A DNA stretch of 64,000 nt from an uncultured Elusimicrobiales bacterium (lineage in GTDB: Bacteria; Elusimicrobiota; Elusimicrobia; Elusimicrobiales; Elusimicrobiaceae): positions 70,694 to 134,693 of the forward strand of contig CALUXE010000001.1 of NCBI GenBank assembly GCA_944324675.1, given 5' to 3'. This document shows positions 46,270 through 52,977 of this stretch, piece by piece; positions within the stretch are counted from its first letter, which is position 1; every line of letters begins with the position of its first letter. The notes beneath the pieces are model-generated. The model was not told the origin of the DNA and made no database searches. It saw only the letters and a list, made by a program, of their open reading frames with translations. The translations under genes and the position numbers were made by a program.

Positions 46270-46734
46270 TTATGCGGTCGGCAAGCCGAGAGACTCGCAA
46301 ATACCTGCTCTGTCGCCGCTTGCGGAGCAGGTCACCTTGCCGGTATAATAGTATCTCATAAGGGTATATCCGGAGCTGCTGGCAGTACCATTCCTGGAAG
46401 CGGTTACCACTCCGTTGGCAGTAGTAGTCCCATCAACCTTAATGGTAAAGTTATTGGTGGACCAACTTTCTCCGGTCACGGGATTGCCGCTAACATCGGC
46501 GAACTCAATATCCAAAGAGTTTAGACTCTCAGGATATGTGTTAGAAGAGCTGACCAATCTCGCTCTCTCCATAGCAGCGGCCAAAGAACCCATAATGGAT
46601 AAAGCTTCAGTCGCTCTGGATTTTTCCACAGCTTTAAAATACTGCGGCAACGCTACGGCGGCCAAGATACCGATTATCAAGACCACGACAAGCATTTCAA
46701 TAAGGGTAAAACCCTTCTTGTTTAAGCTTTTCAT
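46270..46734 (-). CDS. pilE: Type IV prepilin, PilE-like (candidate major pilin)
   Basis: About 154 residues with a short basic leader (MKSLNKKG), the prepilin peptidase site G|FTLIE with Glu5, and a long hydrophobic helix (MLVVVLIIGILAAVALPQYF). A globular domain follows, ending in a Cys pair (KVTCSASGDRAGICES) that could form the D-region disulfide. The Shine-Dalgarno is AAGGAGGA. It is a single gene with its own promoter and terminator, apart from the big pilus operon, as expected for a highly expressed major pilin. The other prepilins lack such separate control. Confidence 0.93.
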   Translation of the reverse strand: MKSLNKKGFTLIEMLVVVLIIGILAAVALPQYFKAVEKSRATEALSIMGSLAAAMERARLVSSSNTYPESLNSLDIEFADVSGNPVTGESWSTNNFTIKVDGTTTANGVVTASRNGTASSSGYTLMRYYYTGKVTCSASGDRAGICESLGLPTA

Positions 46735-47009
46735 AAACTTCCTCCTTGTTTGCCCTTGCTGGGCATATAAAAATCTATCAAAAAAAGGCCGTCCCAGTCA
46801 AGCTTTTCCCGACTTCCGGCCCCCACCCGACGGGACTTCCCGCTTTTTAAAAATCGGGCAAATAGTTTTGCGCTCCCCAAAAGGGCAAAATGTTTGCGGA
46901 GCGTAATTACAACAGAACCCCGGGAGGCCCCCATAAAAACTACGCCCGGCGGCGCGATTTTAAAACAGGGCGGACTTAAATCCGGTCTATAAAGCGTTTT
47001 TTCTGGGCC
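46735..47009. other. Long intergenic spacer between pilE and the non-coding RNA
   Basis: I see no coding frame with a plausible start here. The left end holds the pilE leader and promoter. The rest contains GC-rich dyads (for example GCGCTCC/GGAGCGT arms at about 46870-46904) that might be a leader structure or regulator site, but none is diagnostic. Confidence 0.45.
46772..46801 (-). promoter_or_regulatory. Promoter of pilE
   Basis: On the minus strand TTGACT (46796-46801) and TAGATT (46772-46777) are 18 nt apart. The resulting leader of about 30 nt ends in AAGGAGGAAGTTT before ATG at 46734. Confidence 0.6.
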
Positions 47010-47039
47010 TTGACTTTTAACTTTTGCCGCTTATATTAT
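47010..47039 (+). promoter_or_regulatory. Promoter of the structured non-coding RNA
   Basis: TTGACT (47010-47015) and TATTAT (47034-47039) with 18-nt spacing, close to the sigma-70 consensus. An alternative -10, TATATT at 47032, gives 16 nt. Predicted start near 47046. No protein gene follows on this strand. Confidence 0.7.
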
Positions 47040-47045
47040 ACTTAA

Positions 47046-47210
47046 GGCTGTAGAAGGCATCTTGAGCGGGTGCCGTGATCAGGGGCAGAGGTGCCCCGGC
47101 ATGGCGCTAAGCCCCCTTAAGGAAGTACGACCTAACAGCACTTAAAGGAACAGAGAATGACCAAAGCGTCAATAACTAACTAACCCCCGAATACGAAAGC
47201 GGGGGTTTTT
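47046..47210 (+). ncRNA. Unassigned structured non-coding RNA, about 160 nt
   Basis: A closed transcription unit: a strong promoter upstream and a hairpin plus T5 at its end. The RNA can fold into a closing helix GCTGT (47047-47051) with ACAGC (47135-47139). Inside is a long arm built from AGCG/CGCT (47065-47068 with 47105-47108), GTGCC/GGCAT (47070-47074 with 47098-47102) and GGGGCA/TGCCCC (47082-47087 with 47092-47097) capped by GAGG. A terminator stem closes the 3' end. No start codon with Shine-Dalgarno and meaningful frame was seen. It does not show the conserved cores of SRP RNA, tmRNA, RNase P RNA or c-di-GMP riboswitches that I know. Size and the enclosed hairpin leave a divergent 6S-like RNA possible. 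Confidence 0.6.
47184..47210 (+). terminator. Terminator of the non-coding RNA
   Basis: CCCCCG (47184-47189) and CGGGGG (47200-47205) are followed by TTTTT. Confidence 0.85.
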
Positions 47211-47363
47211 CGTCGGCGGATAAATTCGCCTTAGCGCATTTCTTAAAAATATCTGTTGACGAGAACCCGCCGCCAAGCCGTAATATATCGCCGTAATATA
47301 TCGTTTTATAGTCTTAATTATAGATAATGCCAAATATAGCTAAGCCAAAAGAGTTTCAAAAAA

Positions 47364-47388
47364 ATCGGCCCGTTAAAATCGGGCCGAT
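47364..47388 (-). terminator. Terminator at the end of the pilus operon
   Basis: ATCGGCCCG and CGGGCCGAT pair perfectly around TTAAAAT. The minus-strand transcript continues into TTTTTT. It lies 5 nt beyond the metalloprotease stop and closes the cluster that begins upstream at 61 kb. Confidence 0.9.
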
Positions 47389-47392
47389 CGCC

Positions 47393-48772
47393 TTATATTA
47401 AACCGTTCTTTATCTTTTGGCGTTCCTGCCTTTGCATTTCCACCAGCCATTTCCAGAACTTCGTTTCAAAATCCTGCATATTTCTAAAGCCGTAGGCTTT
47501 TTTAAGGGCGGCTTCGGTCGACATTCTCTTCTTTATGACTCTGCCTTGTTCGTCGCGCATTACTTTGCCTTTGGAGTCTTTTTTGTCTTCAAAGGTCTTC
47601 ATAAGTTTGGTAAATTGCTCAAACTGTATCCTCTTATCTGGGTAATCGGAATTTTTGGAGCGGAACAAGAACCTTACCATCGCGTAAGCCTGGAAATACC
47701 AATTCTCCACGTCGCCCTTCTGCTCCGCGATATCATAAGAGCTATTCTTTACGAAATCCGCGAAATTGGTAAACACTACCGTCTTTGCCGTTACCATATT
47801 TGAAGCCGCCGCGCGCCGCTCTTCCGCCGTCAGCCTTTGCCCGCTTCTTAACCGCGAAAGCAGTTTTAATTTCTCGCTTTGGCTGATTATGTTTATTACC
47901 ACCAAATCATTTGCCCAAACACCGCCCTTCGTACTGGAGGATATATCCTCCATATTCACGGCCAGGCCCTCGTTTAGCCATATCGGCGGTTCCAGTTTAT
48001 ACCCTTCCGAAGGCGGATTGAAAAATTCTTCCACAAAAAGGTGCGTCAGCTCGTGCGTGAACTGGGACAACATCTTAGAGGTGTTCTTCGGCTCGTCGTA
48101 CATCACTATTCTGTCTTCCGTCGGGGAGAAAAACGCCCCCGACCAACTGCTGGCCACCGGCTCGTTCCTTAGAAAACTCTGCCTGTTCTGATATACGTAA
48201 ACCTTGGATTTGCCCGACATCATCCAAGATATATTCTTGCTTAAAACTTGATGGACCGTCTCAAACTTCATACCCAAATTAGGCGTCATAATACCGCTGG
48301 TTTGCGGTTCTACTTTTAGATTGAAATTGCGCGTGGAACTGTCTATCCATTTAATCCCGCGGCCGGGCTCTTTGGCTTTTTGGGAGGAGCTCTTTTCCAC
48401 CTTCTTGAATTGGGGCGTTTTTATCGATGCGGAAGCGTCGGGCTTATCGGTATTAATGATTTCCTCGCCGCCCGCTTCCCCTTCGCTCCCTTCCTGAAGG
48501 TTTATCTGTTCGGATTGCTCGTCTTTAGGCGGCCTTATCAAACTTAATGTGGACGAGGATACGGTATTCTCATAGCTATCCTCTTGATTTGACGCGGGCA
48601 AAGGCGCCTCCCCGTCCGAGGCGGCCGCCCCAGAAGCCTTAGCTTTGCGAGCCTTATCCAAAAAGCTCTGGGATAAATCGCTTTGCTCCGCTCTTAATAA
48701 GGGAGATAAACAAAATAAAATGGCAACGGCCATAACCGCTTTATGTACTTTATCGCTCTGCATTCGCCGCAT
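47393..48772 (-). CDS. Secreted gluzincin-type metalloprotease (peptidase MA-like)
   Basis: About 459 residues. A signal peptide (near 1-28, ending LLRAE) is followed by a long disordered acidic/Ser region to about 140 and a protease domain. Zinc motif HELTH lies at 240-244, with the downstream Glu in WLNEGLAVNMED at about 268: the HExxH plus Glu pattern of gluzincins, close to the peptidase-MA/DUF1570 group. It starts 9 nt after the prepilin-like gene and is the last gene of the pilus operon. It might process or turn over surface pilus components. That role is inference from position. Confidence 0.82.
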   Translation of the reverse strand: MRRMQSDKVHKAVMAVAILFCLSPLLRAEQSDLSQSFLDKARKAKASGAAASDGEAPLPASNQEDSYENTVSSSTLSLIRPPKDEQSEQINLQEGSEGEAGGEEIINTDKPDASASIKTPQFKKVEKSSSQKAKEPGRGIKWIDSSTRNFNLKVEPQTSGIMTPNLGMKFETVHQVLSKNISWMMSGKSKVYVYQNRQSFLRNEPVASSWSGAFFSPTEDRIVMYDEPKNTSKMLSQFTHELTHLFVEEFFNPPSEGYKLEPPIWLNEGLAVNMEDISSSTKGGVWANDLVVINIISQSEKLKLLSRLRSGQRLTAEERRAAASNMVTAKTVVFTNFADFVKNSSYDIAEQKGDVENWYFQAYAMVRFLFRSKNSDYPDKRIQFEQFTKLMKTFEDKKDSKGKVMRDEQGRVIKKRMSTEAALKKAYGFRNMQDFETKFWKWLVEMQRQERQKIKNGLI

Positions 48773-48781
48773 TTTTAAACG

Positions 48782-49138
48782 TTAATCAAGATCTTTCGTA
48801 TCTATCAAAAACTCTATATTGCCCAAACCGGTTGTGGTGGAACCCCACTTTATACCAATTTCAGTAGTTACTCCATCTATGGTACAAGTAAAAGTTTCGA
48901 CGTTATTGGCATCCAGCAACGGCGGTACGCCATCCAAAGCGCGCTGCACCGCTATTGCGTTATATTGCGCTATACAGCCCTCCGCATAGGCTTTTGACGA
49001 TATCATACGTTTAGTCTTAAGCATATTGCTGGTTCTGCCAACAGCGAACCTCATAAGCATAATGATAATGGCCGCGATTATGCTCCCCATTACCATAACT
49101 TGCATCAATGCCGATCCCTTTCTGCCGAAAATCCTCAT
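48782..49138 (-). CDS. Prepilin-like minor pseudopilin without Glu5
   Basis: About 118 residues. A leader RIFGRKG precedes SALMQVMVMGSIIAAIIIMLM, a prepilin-type helix in which position +5 is Gln instead of Glu. GspK and similar tip pseudopilins also lack Glu5, though GspK is much longer; PilX-type minor pilins are nearer in size. The mature domain has a Cys pair (EGCIAQ, FTCTID). GGAGG lies 9 nt before ATG. It follows the PilW-like gene by one base, which supports a role in the same tip complex. Confidence 0.75.
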   Translation of the reverse strand: MRIFGRKGSALMQVMVMGSIIAAIIIMLMRFAVGRTSNMLKTKRMISSKAYAEGCIAQYNAIAVQRALDGVPPLLDANNVETFTCTIDGVTTEIGIKWGSTTTGLGNIEFLIDTKDLD

Positions 49139-49139
49139 T

Positions 49140-49784
49140 TTACGCGCCTCCGGCCTTTATAAACGTCTTGCTCATTTCTATATGTACGGGCGGATTCTCG
49201 CTCCCTTCAAAATCCTTATGTACTATTAAGCTGACCGTATAATTTATATTGTCGTCGGTGGAAACATCAAATCCGTTTGAAACTATATAATCCATGTAAA
49301 TCCTTCCGCTTGAACATGCGCTTTCGGCATTGCTTATCAAAGTCGATTTCTCCAAAGAGTCTGTGGATAATTCCTTTAAAGGGATTTCCGCAGACCGCCT
49401 TATCGTGTTTCCTTCCAAGCAATACGCAAACGCTACAGGTTCGCTTTCTATCTGCGGGCCGCCCGGATCCTGGGTGTATGATATCGTATTTGGCTCCACA
49501 TAATAGTTCGAACCCCGTTTAACCAAATACGCATTGCGTACGGCCACTATTAGTGCGCCTGACGCGTTTTTGTCCGGCGCCAATATCAAATCGGCTTCCG
49601 TTATATCGCGGTGTAATGCCCTCATAAATATAGACAAATTGTTCCTTATTATGCTCTGGCGCTGCCCCTGCGACGTCTGCATCGACGAGGCCTTCCATAC
49701 CGTCATCAATGCTATTACCACCATGCTGGCTATAAATACCGCTACCAGCAGTTCCATTAAGGTAAAGCCTTTTCTATTGTTCAT
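49140..49784 (-). CDS. Prepilin-like minor pilin (PilW/GspJ-like)
   Basis: About 214 residues, the largest prepilin here. Leader MNNRKG, then FTLMELLVAVFIASMVVIAL with Glu5. Its length and the following WKASSMQTSQGQRQSIIRNN helix recall PilW/GspJ, which have a larger globular domain. Two Cys occur in the mature part (YCLEGN, SACSSG). It is ATGA-coupled to the preceding prepilin gene. The specific GspJ/PilW role is inferred from size and order. Confidence 0.82.
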   Translation of the reverse strand: MNNRKGFTLMELLVAVFIASMVVIALMTVWKASSMQTSQGQRQSIIRNNLSIFMRALHRDITEADLILAPDKNASGALIVAVRNAYLVKRGSNYYVEPNTISYTQDPGGPQIESEPVAFAYCLEGNTIRRSAEIPLKELSTDSLEKSTLISNAESACSSGRIYMDYIVSNGFDVSTDDNINYTVSLIVHKDFEGSENPPVHIEMSKTFIKAGGA

Positions 49785-50194
49785 AACACTTCACCATTGC
49801 AAACAATCTTTATCTTTATTTGGTTTACCGTAGGAGTATACGCCCCCGTATTATCCGATACCGAAAGGCCGCTAACCGTATACTTTAAACTGGAATTATA
49901 TCCTCCACCGGTTTTGCATACATCGGGCAATAATTCGGAACAGTCGTGCTCACCGTTTTCCAACGGCGTCGTGCTCCCGCACAAAGGGTCCAAATCCCCG
50001 CTTTCCATATCCACATAATTCTTTATGCTGTTGGCCAAACTCTCAACCGTATAAATCATCTCTTCCCTATAGCTCGGCTCCACTATCGCGCGGCGAGAAG
50101 CCATCAAAGCGGAAAATATCGCGCCGACCATTATCGCCACCAATAACATCGCTATTATGCCTTCAACTATAGTATAACCCTTTCTGTTAAACAT
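49781..50194 (-). CDS. Prepilin-like minor pilin (PilV/GspI-like)
   Basis: About 137 residues. Leader MFNRKG, then YTIVEGIIAMLLVAIMVGAIF with Tyr at +1 and Glu5. The mature domain carries four Cys around DLDPLCGSTTPLENGEHDCSELLPDVCK and a later VCNGEVL. Position before a PilW/GspJ-like and a Glu5-less protein matches the I-J-K order of tip pseudopilins. AAGGA precedes ATG, and it is ATGA-coupled downstream. Confidence 0.82.
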   Translation of the reverse strand: MFNRKGYTIVEGIIAMLLVAIMVGAIFSALMASRRAIVEPSYREEMIYTVESLANSIKNYVDMESGDLDPLCGSTTPLENGEHDCSELLPDVCKTGGGYNSSLKYTVSGLSVSDNTGAYTPTVNQIKIKIVCNGEVL

Positions 50195-50203
50195 ATATTT
50201 TCC

Positions 50204-50707
50204 TTAATCCGAGTTCTTATTGTCCTTTATATTGCCATATTCGTCTACGCATGCGCAATATGACGAACCGTAATCTCCTCCGGTGTCTGTCCCTTGCATC
50301 GACGCGTGTACCGTACCGCTGCATGCAGAACAACTTCCCCCTACCTTAAAGGTGTATTTCATACGGCTCCATTTTATCGGCCTCAAATATTTGCAGCTTA
50401 CCAATACATTCGCTTCGTTATTGCCGCTATACCGTATTGTGTTTTCGCCGCAATCCGCCGCCGTCCTGCTCTCTTTAGTCACCGTGCCGCTTACCGTAGC
50501 GTTCGGGTAATCCGTCCTAAATGTTTTATACGCCTCCGCTATCTGTATCAAGGCGGCTTTCGCCTTCCCGTTTTGCGCGTCGCGTATATACCCCTTTATA
50601 AACGGAGTACTCACAGCCGCCATTAAAGCCAATATTACCATCACCACCAATAATTCCGGCAAAGTAAAGCCTTTATCGTTTGTTCTAGGACCCGCTGACA
50701 ACGCCAT
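50204..50707 (-). CDS. Prepilin, paralogue B of an adjacent pair
   Basis: About 167 residues with an unusually long leader (MALSAGPRTNDKG), then FTLPELLVVMVILALMAAVS with Glu5. The mature domain is Cys-rich (CGENTIRYSG, SCKYLRP, SCSACSG) and ends with YGSSYCACVDEYGNIKDN. The upstream neighbour shares the helix that reads KAKAALIQIAEAYKTF and the same C-terminal motif, so the two are duplicates. The start is supported by GGAGGGG 6 nt upstream even though it overlaps the neighbour by 23 nt. Confidence 0.88.
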   Translation of the reverse strand: MALSAGPRTNDKGFTLPELLVVMVILALMAAVSTPFIKGYIRDAQNGKAKAALIQIAEAYKTFRTDYPNATVSGTVTKESRTAADCGENTIRYSGNNEANVLVSCKYLRPIKWSRMKYTFKVGGSCSACSGTVHASMQGTDTGGDYGSSYCACVDEYGNIKDNKNSD

Positions 50708-51164
50708 CTTTCGCCCCTCCGAATCTGTCTATATACGCGCAATATCCGCTGCCGTAGTTTTCCCCCACTTTGGCCCCCTCTCTGGACGTCATCGTCACCA
50801 AACTCGCCCCGCACGAAGGGGTTTCCGCGGGCGCACCTAAAGTGAAAATATATTTGCTGCCGTCTATATCCGGCTTCCCGCAATAAAAACTCGCCGTACC
50901 GCCGCCTTCAGCCGCCTTGGAGGCCATACACTTCTTATTGGTTGCGTCGTAGGTTACCTGACCGCTTAAAGGCTCCTCAGGGTATTCCATCAAATATGTT
51001 TTGTAAGCCCCCGCTATAACTTCCATCTGGGCTTTGGCCTTCTTATTCTCGCCCTCGTATATCGTTTCCGTATATTTCAAGACCGAATAGGTGGCCAATA
51101 TCATTACTATTATTATGGCTACCAATACTTCCACTAAAGTAAAACCTTTGTTTTTCGCTGTCAT
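50685..51164 (-). CDS. Prepilin, paralogue A of an adjacent pair
   Basis: About 159 residues. Leader MTAKNKG, then FTLVEVLVAIIIVMILATYS with Glu5. The next helix has KKAKAQMEVIAGAYKTYLME, and the domain ends NYGSGYCAYIDRFGGAKDG. Four Cys are present. It shares helix and C-terminal motif with the following gene, which its end overlaps by 23 nt. Such YCAxxD endings are not ones I know from standard GspG/H. Confidence 0.88.
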   Translation of the reverse strand: MTAKNKGFTLVEVLVAIIIVMILATYSVLKYTETIYEGENKKAKAQMEVIAGAYKTYLMEYPEEPLSGQVTYDATNKKCMASKAAEGGGTASFYCGKPDIDGSKYIFTLGAPAETPSCGASLVTMTSREGAKVGENYGSGYCAYIDRFGGAKDGVVSGS

Positions 51165-51196
51165 ATCTTTATCCGTCTGTTTATATATAGCCTATA

Positions 51197-51730
51197 TTAT
51201 GAGCCCGCAGAGGACTCCATTACCACTTTGCCCGGATTTTCGTTGGAAACTTTCCATACTTTCCCCACATAACGCTCGTCCGTAATATTCTCGCCCGGCG
51301 TCATTATCGCTATAACGTTTATATCTCCGCCGCAAGCGGCGTCCGCTACATCCGGCGTACATATATAAAAGTCGTAGCCCCTAAACCCGGTGCCGCTGAA
51401 AGATTCCGGATCCGTTAAGTAGGCGTAGTTTTTTGTCTCCGATTCGTTCATACCAGAGGAAGCGATATTGCTAAAAAACAAGGCCCTCGGATCACTATAG
51501 CCTGCTACAGGATTATTAAACGAACCGGCTATCCTCGCCGTACCCCGCGCGTCTTCGTTATACATCTTGGCCGCGTTGGCTATCTCGACCAACTTCGCCC
51601 GCGCCTGGTTGTTTTTGGAGGTTTCCAACCCTTTCTTGTATGAAGGCACCGCCACTAATGATATTATAGCTATCAATATCACTATTACCAATACCTCCAC
51701 GAACGTAAAGCCGTTCTTTCTCTTTGGCAT
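51197..51730 (-). CDS. Prepilin-like protein
   Basis: About 177 residues. Leader MPKRKNG, then FTFVEVLVIVILIAIISLVA with Glu5, followed by NQARAKLVEIANAAKMYNED, an alpha1-C helix of the GspG/PilA type. Two Cys (FYICTPDVADAACGG) lie in the mature domain. I start it at 51730, where GGAGGT lies 4-5 nt upstream, rather than at an in-frame start overlapping the pilC stop. It is the first prepilin after the platform gene. Confidence 0.87.
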   Translation of the reverse strand: MPKRKNGFTFVEVLVIVILIAIISLVAVPSYKKGLETSKNNQARAKLVEIANAAKMYNEDARGTARIAGSFNNPVAGYSDPRALFFSNIASSGMNESETKNYAYLTDPESFSGTGFRGYDFYICTPDVADAACGGDINVIAIMTPGENITDERYVGKVWKVSNENPGKVVMESSAGS

Positions 51731-51744
51731 ATTACCTCCGGCCC

Positions 51745-52977
51745 TCAACCCGCGCCGATCTGCGACATCTTGAATATAGGCATGAAGATGGAAAGCACTA
51801 CCACCGCTATTATCATACCGATGCCCACAATCAATATGGGGTCTATCAAGGCAGAAAACCGCGCTATAAACTGGTTAATTTGCTCCGTATAGAATTTAGA
51901 TAAAGTTTCCATAATATGCGGCAATCTTCCGGATTCCTCGCCCATCAACATCATTTCCGTCATCAACCCGGGAAACACATGCGTCTTCCTGAAAGATTCC
52001 GATATGCTCTTTCCGGAAGTTACGTCCCTTTTAGCCTCCGTTATCGCGTTCCTGATTATTACATTGCTTTCGAACGCTTCTTCCATAACGTCCAAGACAT
52101 TTATAATGCTCACGCCGCTGTTAAGAAGCGTCGCCATTGTGGAAAGTATTCTTTCAAAATATATGTTGCTTATAAACCCGCCGAATATAGGCATCGTTAT
52201 GTGGAATTTGTGCCATGCCCTTCTGCCCACCGGGTTATGCACCATCATATAAAAAGCACCCACCACGGCTAGTATCGCCACAATAAGCAGGAAAAGGTGG
52301 TTCCTAATCAAGTTAGAAATCGTCAATACCAACTGGGTAATCGCGGGCAGCTCCATATCAAAATCTTTAAATATCGTCGCGAAGGTAGGCACTATACCCA
52401 CTACGAAGTATATCAACACGCCCACCGACATCAAAAACAATATGGCGGGATATGTTACGGCCGTAATAATTTTACTCTTTAAAGTCTCTATAGATTTGAC
52501 ATATTTTGCGATTTGGAGCAAAGCCTCCGACAAATGTCCGCCTACCTCGCCCGCCTGTACCATGGCCAGCCAAGTATGATCGAATACTTTGGGGAATTTC
52601 TCCAAAGAGCCGTGAAGACTGTTCCCGCCCGCGACGTCGCGCGCCACGCTTAAAAGTATCGGCCCCAACTGCTTGTCGGTAGAATATTCGCCCAGCAGCG
52701 AAATGGCCCTTACCAACGGTACGCCTCCCGCGATAAGCGTCGCCAGCTGCTCGGCAAAAAACGCTTTCACGTGGCCCGGCACCTTCGCCGACGAGGCGTT
52801 AAGAGATGTCTGTCCAAACGCCGCAAAAAGGCTTTTCCTTATTACGGGTGTAATCTCTATAACAAATATACCCTTGGCCTGCAATATCTCCAAAGCCTTC
52901 TCTTTACTGGCGGCATTCACGTGGCTCTTATAATTCCTGCCGCTGCTGTCTTGGGCTACATAATTAAATCTCGCCAT
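51745..52977 (-). CDS. pilC: Type IV pilus / type II secretion inner-membrane platform protein PilC
   Basis: About 410 residues with two GspF domains, each ending in membrane helices. First: FFAEQLATLIAGGVPLVRAI near residue 68, with GNSLHGSLEKFPKVFDHTW. Second: FERILSTMATLLNSGVSIIN near 270, with GKSISESFRKTHVFP. The three membrane segments and a C-terminal LIVGIGMIIAVVVLSIFMPIF are typical. It sits in the inner membrane below the pilus and is driven by PilB, whose gene is 20 nt upstream. Confidence 0.95.
   Translation of the reverse strand: MARFNYVAQDSSGRNYKSHVNAASKEKALEILQAKGIFVIEITPVIRKSLFAAFGQTSLNASSAKVPGHVKAFFAEQLATLIAGGVPLVRAISLLGEYSTDKQLGPILLSVARDVAGGNSLHGSLEKFPKVFDHTWLAMVQAGEVGGHLSEALLQIAKYVKSIETLKSKIITAVTYPAILFLMSVGVLIYFVVGIVPTFATIFKDFDMELPAITQLVLTISNLIRNHLFLLIVAILAVVGAFYMMVHNPVGRRAWHKFHITMPIFGGFISNIYFERILSTMATLLNSGVSIINVLDVMEEAFESNVIIRNAITEAKRDVTSGKSISESFRKTHVFPGLMTEMMLMGEESGRLPHIMETLSKFYTEQINQFIARFSALIDPILIVGIGMIIAVVVLSIFMPIFKMSQIGAG

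What the first reader, a model, noticed from the sequence alone, without database searches (positions are those of the whole stretch)
47010..47210. Orphan structured RNA gene between the pilus operon and the major prepilin gene
A near-consensus promoter (TTGACT, 18 nt, TATTAT) and an intrinsic terminator bound a unit of about 160 nt that has no protein frame. The sequence folds into a closing helix around a three-tiered hairpin arm whose helices (GGGGCA/TGCCCC, GTGCC/GGCAT, AGCG/CGCT) are listed with the feature. I do not recognise the conserved cores of SRP RNA, tmRNA, RNase P RNA or known riboswitches. It is transcribed away from the prepilin gene and towards the end of the pilus operon, so it could regulate pilus genes or be a general RNA such as a divergent 6S.
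Basis: partly seen in the sequence, partly recalled or inferred. Interest (0 to 1): 0.68.

Follow-up and report, generated by a model that had tools for sequence, protein, structure and literature searches.

The report
New gut-bacterial RNA with tiny ORF
The stretch is a real, previously undescribed small RNA gene found only in one family of mostly gut-dwelling bacteria (Elusimicrobiaceae); it folds into a strongly conserved rod and ends with a ribosome-binding site and a tiny reading frame of about 5-8 codons, so it probably works by engaging ribosomes rather than by regulating the neighbouring pilus genes.

Summary
Window 47044-47210 (+) is a stand-alone RNA gene with a conserved sigma-70-type promoter, an intrinsic terminator and a ~100-nt folded domain. 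No Rfam family matches, even permissively. A covariance model built from the genus finds it in 77 of 90 Elusimicrobiaceae genomes (75 full length, 2 cut at contig ends), nearly always one copy, and in none of the other 251 phylum genomes convincingly. Compensatory changes strongly support the fold (15 of 24 pairs across genera, 17 of 39 within the genus; 0 of 500 shuffles match). Flanking genes change between genera, so there is no link to pilus genes. The genome has recognised tmRNA and RNase P RNA but no recognisable 6S or SRP RNA, and no Ffh. The peptide is not conserved between genera; start and stop are. Best reading: a lineage-specific, ribosome-engaging small RNA. Expression, translation and targets are untested.

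The parts
47010..47037 (+). sigma-70-type promoter: -35 TTGACT (47010-47015), 16-nt spacer, -10 TATATT (47032-47037)
   Evidence: One search lists both registers; alignment of 12 relatives shows the -10 as TATACT/TATATT/TATAAT at this register.
47044..47210 (+). RNA gene, about 167 nt, predicted start to end of U run
   Evidence: Covariance model R1 match 47041-47212, 182.9 bits; homologues. The start site is inferred from the promoter.
47045..47142 (+). 5' structured domain; closing helix P1: 47045-47051 with 47135-47139 and 47141-47142
   Evidence: All 7 pairs of P1 carry a change on both sides within the genus.
47055..47133 (+). short helix P1b: 47055-47057 with 47131-47133
   Evidence: 2 of 3 pairs with compensatory changes.
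47060..47122 (+). helix P2: 47060-47066 with 47116-47122
   Evidence: Compensatory changes, e.g. UA/CG/GC at one pair.
47068..47114 (+). helix P3: 47068-47071 with 47111-47114; 5-nt one-sided bulge GCUAA at 47106-47110 (nearly always ending AA in relatives)
   Evidence: Third pair varies UA/GC/CG across genera with no cell unpaired.
47072..47105 (+). helix P4: 47072-47077 with 47100-47105
   Evidence: Compensatory changes at several pairs across genera.
47082..47097 (+). apical hairpin P5: GGGGCA/UGCCCC
   Evidence: Most pairs with compensatory changes across genera.
47144..47149 (+). Shine-Dalgarno-like AAAGGA in the single-stranded tail, 7 nt before the AUG
   Evidence: present in all 76 homologues; mean pairing energy with an assumed anti-SD -8.3 kcal/mol against -5.7 for 737 long ORFs of this genome and -3.1 for a control.
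47157..47183 (+). micro-ORF ATGACCAAAGCGTCAATAACTAACTAA (MTKASITN*); the last 11 bases hold UAA in all three frames
   Evidence: 76 of 76 homologues have an AUG whose frame ends at or within 5 nt before the terminator-proximal stop; 1-5% of shuffled tails do so for genera g1 and g2, 7-27% for g6.
47184..47210 (+). intrinsic terminator: stem 47184-47205 plus U run

Best explanation
This is a family-specific, stand-alone small RNA of Elusimicrobiaceae. It is made from its own sigma-70-type promoter and ended by an intrinsic terminator. Its 5' part folds into a rod (P1-P5 with a 5-nt bulge) that probably binds a protein or ligand or shields the RNA. Its 3' part is a mostly single-stranded tail that recruits 30S subunits through a strong Shine-Dalgarno sequence, starts at AUG, and releases ribosomes after a few codons at a stop abutting the terminator. 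Because start and stop are kept while the peptide changes between genera, and in genus g1 even between species by frame-shifting indels, the likely function lies in engaging the ribosome (a trans-acting or housekeeping RNA acting on or with ribosomes), not in the peptide and not in the neighbouring genes. Shown computationally: gene boundaries, fold, conservation, the ORF pattern. Inferred: transcription, translation, ribosome engagement as the function.
For: No Rfam match. Found in 77/90 family genomes, nearly always single copy, and not convincingly in 251 other genomes of the phylum. Covariation 0/500 shuffles. Conserved promoter. Neighbours not conserved. SD + AUG + short frame closed at the terminator in 76/76; rare in shuffled tails of g1/g2. 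In g6, length changes between AUG and stop are multiples of 3 (18, 21 or 24 nt) while the SD-AUG spacer varies freely; in g1, frame-shifting changes are caught by stops in three frames.
Against: No transcript or ribosome-profiling data. In g6 the AUG lies in a small GUCAU/AUGAC hairpin, so part of the conservation there may be structural, and AUG-rich g6 tails meet the ORF criterion in up to 27% of shuffles. Some sequences have an alternative upstream AUG, in or out of register. No target, ligand or partner identified. Some members of the genus appear to lack it (G006, G009, G010, G013).
Confidence: 0.45

Rival explanations
1. A conventional trans-acting antisense small RNA: loops or the single-stranded tail pair with mRNAs; the SD-like stretch and AUG are incidental or pairing sites.
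For: Size, own promoter, terminator and single-stranded tail fit typical bacterial sRNAs.
Against: All lineages keep SD, AUG and an in-frame stop despite little other tail similarity. No Hfq or CsrA found by pairwise search of the genome (weak evidence). The tail is purine-rich like an SD, not pyrimidine-rich like usual seeds.
Confidence: 0.25
2. A dual-function RNA or orphan riboswitch: the folded domain controls translation of a functional micro-peptide.
For: Aptamer-like 5' domain followed by SD and ORF; Thr near the start and Ser/Asn before the stop recur (M-x-M-T-x-M-S in g6; MTxxSITN in much of g1).
Against: Peptides of 5-8 residues differ between genera and even by frame within g1 (MTKASITN, MTKVYN, MTIRVNN). 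The SD is predicted mostly open, with no conserved alternative pairing seen.
Confidence: 0.15
3. A divergent 6S RNA that binds RNA polymerase.
For: Single copy, ~170 nt, rod-like; no recognisable 6S in the genome.
Against: No Rfam 6S hit even at E<=10; only small internal loops, no large central bubble; SD and ORF in the tail; intrinsic terminator included.
Confidence: 0.06
4. A divergent SRP (4.5S) RNA.
For: Rfam finds no SRP RNA in this genome.
Against: The genome has no Ffh M domain (all 14 controls positive) and no Ffh-like sequence by tblastn while EF-Tu is found at 65% identity. The apical hairpin lacks the domain IV core. It is absent from sister family f2, where the SRP RNA search also gave nothing.
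Confidence: 0.01
5. A cis or antisense regulator of the adjacent prepilin or pilus genes.
For: It lies between a prepilin gene and a putative peptidase gene in the window; prepilin-like genes flank some homologues.
Against: Most homologues have other neighbours; prepilin genes are simply frequent in this family. Promoter and terminator are self-contained.
Confidence: 0.03

Closest known systems
Dual-function (coding) bacterial sRNAs such as SgrS/SgrT, RNAIII/hld, SR1/SR1P (from general knowledge)
   Same: Small RNA with its own promoter and terminator that also carries an SD and a short ORF.
   Different: Known ones encode peptides of tens of residues conserved in sequence; here mostly 5-8 codons, the peptide is not conserved, and the stop abuts the terminator.
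Minigenes such as lambda bar (from general knowledge)
   Same: SD, AUG, very few codons, stop; the act of translation matters rather than the product.
   Different: Here it is the 3' tail of a structured, independently transcribed chromosomal RNA conserved across a family.
6S RNA (RF00013)
   Same: Stand-alone, structured, single-copy, similar length.
   Different: No Rfam match, no large central bubble, has SD and ORF.
Leader-peptide attenuators
   Same: Short ORF directly in front of an intrinsic terminator.
   Different: No conserved downstream gene; often a convergent gene follows.

Membership tests
6S RNA (RF00013) | Match to the 6S covariance model | tested here: not met
   Searches (locus; whole genome, E<=10): none.
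6S RNA (RF00013) | Long closing stem, large central bubble, apical stem | tested here: not met
   The covarying fold is a rod of helices P1-P5 with small internal loops.
6S RNA (RF00013) | RNA polymerase binding and pRNA synthesis | not testable with these tools
   Needs biochemistry.
SRP RNA (RF00169/RF01854) | Domain IV core and match to the models | tested here: not met
   at the locus; and 18 genome-wide: none.
SRP RNA (RF00169/RF01854) | Presence of the partner protein Ffh | tested here: not met
   PF02978 absent; no tblastn hit.
tmRNA (RF00023) / RNase P RNA (RF00010) | Match to the models | tested here: not met
   The genome's real ones lie elsewhere.
Dual-function small RNA | Own promoter and terminator, structured or base-pairing RNA | tested here: met
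Dual-function small RNA | Translated ORF with a functional, conserved peptide | tested here: inconclusive
   SD, AUG and stop conserved, peptide sequence not conserved between genera; translation untested.
Riboswitch or leader attenuator | Conserved downstream gene under its control | tested here: not met
   Downstream genes vary in identity and strand.

The most novel reading that the evidence does not exclude
A new class of bacterial RNA in which a structured domain is joined to a micro-ORF whose initiation and immediate termination, not its peptide, is the function: a ribosome-engaging RNA, in a lineage whose genome shows neither an SRP nor (by weak evidence) Hfq or CsrA.
Probability: 0.3. 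Interest if true: 0.82.

Novelty: new variant of a known kind. Interest (0 to 1): 0.6.

Why it matters
It adds an RNA family absent from Rfam 15, carried by most genomes of a poorly studied gut-associated bacterial family and by what is, from its genome length, the cultured species E. minutum, where it can be tested. If the micro-ORF is translated, it would be a natural case in which starting and stopping a ribosome on a small RNA is selected for without conservation of the product.

Tried and rejected
Pilus regulation (neighbours not conserved). 6S and SRP identity. Phage origin (no match in the phage collection). Leader or attenuator of a downstream gene. Weak matches of R1/R2 below about 37 bits: those read were 3' ends of coding genes plus a similar terminator (e.g. 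L086, L099, L100, L102, and G332 outside the family), so they were not counted. The two weak SRP hits in relatives (L031, L032) gave no SRP match up to E=1 when scanned directly. An SRP motif scan was too loose to inform. The genome-wide name search with a short pattern mostly returned chance matches; only L212 was useful. Literature searches found no report of this RNA.

Full report
WHAT IS THERE. The feature is on the + strand. In relatives the aligned positions read TATACT, TATATT or TATAAT, so the 16-nt register is preferred and the start is near 47044. The terminator stem is 47184-47205 with a U run. The whole-window Rfam scan finds only four tRNAs; a permissive scan of the locus gives only sub-threshold chance matches. 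The 169-nt RNA folds at -58.7 kcal/mol, z = -2.8, 0 of 200 shuffles as stable.

CONSERVATION. blastn finds near-full or partial matches in 12 of 18 genomes of the genus. A covariance model from these (R1), then a second from three genera (R2), finds the RNA in 77 of 90 genomes of the family: 75 with full-length matches of at least 81 bits (58 in genus g6, 14 in g1, 3 in g2), and two cut at contig ends (G084, G092). It is single copy except in one draft genome, G096, with two. None of the 251 other genomes of the phylum has more than 30.5 bits, and that match is the end of a coding region plus a terminator. Within the family it was not found in g3, g4, g5 or in four g1 genomes. The family belongs to Elusimicrobiales: contig G001:C3 has the length of CALUXD010000003.1, an uncultured Elusimicrobiales genome. 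G018 is a single contig of 1,643,562 bases, which from memory is the length of the Elusimicrobium minutum Pei191 chromosome.

FOLD. Across genera (35 sequences) 96.7% of cells are paired, 15 of 24 pairs show changes on both sides and the covariation score is 0.467 against 0.166 in shuffles (0 of 500) and at most 0.124 for slid partners. Within the genus 17 of 39 pairs have double changes, including all seven pairs of closing helix P1. Architecture: P1, P1b, P2, P3, a 5-nt one-sided bulge nearly always ending in AA, P4, apical hairpin P5, then a mostly single-stranded tail and the terminator. Individual folds of members of all three genera agree.

THE TAIL. In all 76 homologous sequences a Shine-Dalgarno-like stretch is followed by an AUG whose frame closes at, or within 5 nt before, the stop that abuts the terminator. 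The frames are mostly 5-8 codons; five g1 sequences also have a longer in-register start. Pairing energy with an assumed anti-SD averages -8.3 kcal/mol, against -5.7 for 737 long ORFs of this genome and -3.1 for a downstream control (the 16S 3' end itself was not found in the fetched assembly). Dinucleotide shuffles meet the same criterion in 1-5% of g1/g2 tails and 7-27% of the AUG-rich g6 tails. The lineages are related, so these numbers cannot simply be multiplied, but the tails differ strongly between genera. In g6 the AUG-to-stop length is 18, 21 or 24 nt, always in frame, while the SD-to-AUG spacer varies freely. In g1 the +1 and -2 length changes are tolerated because UAACUAACUAA stops all three frames; this 11-mer occurs once in the whole genome. 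This points to selection on starting and promptly stopping a ribosome, not on the peptide. A caveat is the small GUCAU/AUGAC hairpin around the AUG in g6; it is not present in the g2 sequences or in one g6 sequence (L058), where the frame is kept.

NEIGHBOURS. Upstream and downstream genes differ between genera and clades and the downstream gene is often convergent, so this is neither a leader nor a pilus-linked element.

MECHANISM. Most likely a constitutively made RNA whose rod binds something or protects it and whose tail engages ribosomes. Steps shown: gene limits, fold, conservation, SD-AUG-stop pattern. Steps inferred: transcription, translation, the consequence for the cell. No experimental data were available.

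WHAT IT IS NOT. Not 6S, not tmRNA or RNase P RNA (both found elsewhere), not SRP RNA. The genome lacks the Ffh M domain and any Ffh-like sequence by tblastn, in line with a published observation that few Elusimicrobia have SRP homologues (PMC7987157).

Noticed in passing
whole genome G000 (window = G000:C1:70694-134693): No SRP system detected: no small or large SRP RNA, no Ffh M domain although all 14 control genomes have one, no Ffh tblastn hit while EF-Tu is found. RF00169 also gave nothing credible in 60 genomes of the order. PMC7987157 already notes that few Elusimicrobia have SRP homologues.
   Followed up: partly
window 46270-51748, - strand: A run of short genes with type IV prepilin N-terminal motifs (46270-46734 matches PF07963) next to a T2SS F-type gene at 51745-52977; prepilin-like genes also lie near many RNA homologues in other species.
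   Followed up: no
window 47393-48772, - strand: Gene convergent with the RNA, putative zinc metallopeptidase (HELTH motif; weak Peptidase_MA_2 match just below its cut-off), syntenic in the closest relatives.
   Followed up: no
genus g6 loci, e.g. L055, L062: Just upstream of the modelled RNA start lies a short palindrome (GTAC AAA GTAC), which would form a 5'-end hairpin if the transcript starts a few bases earlier.
   Followed up: no
whole genome G000: No Hfq or CsrA by pairwise tblastn with the E. coli proteins; weak evidence only.
   Followed up: partly
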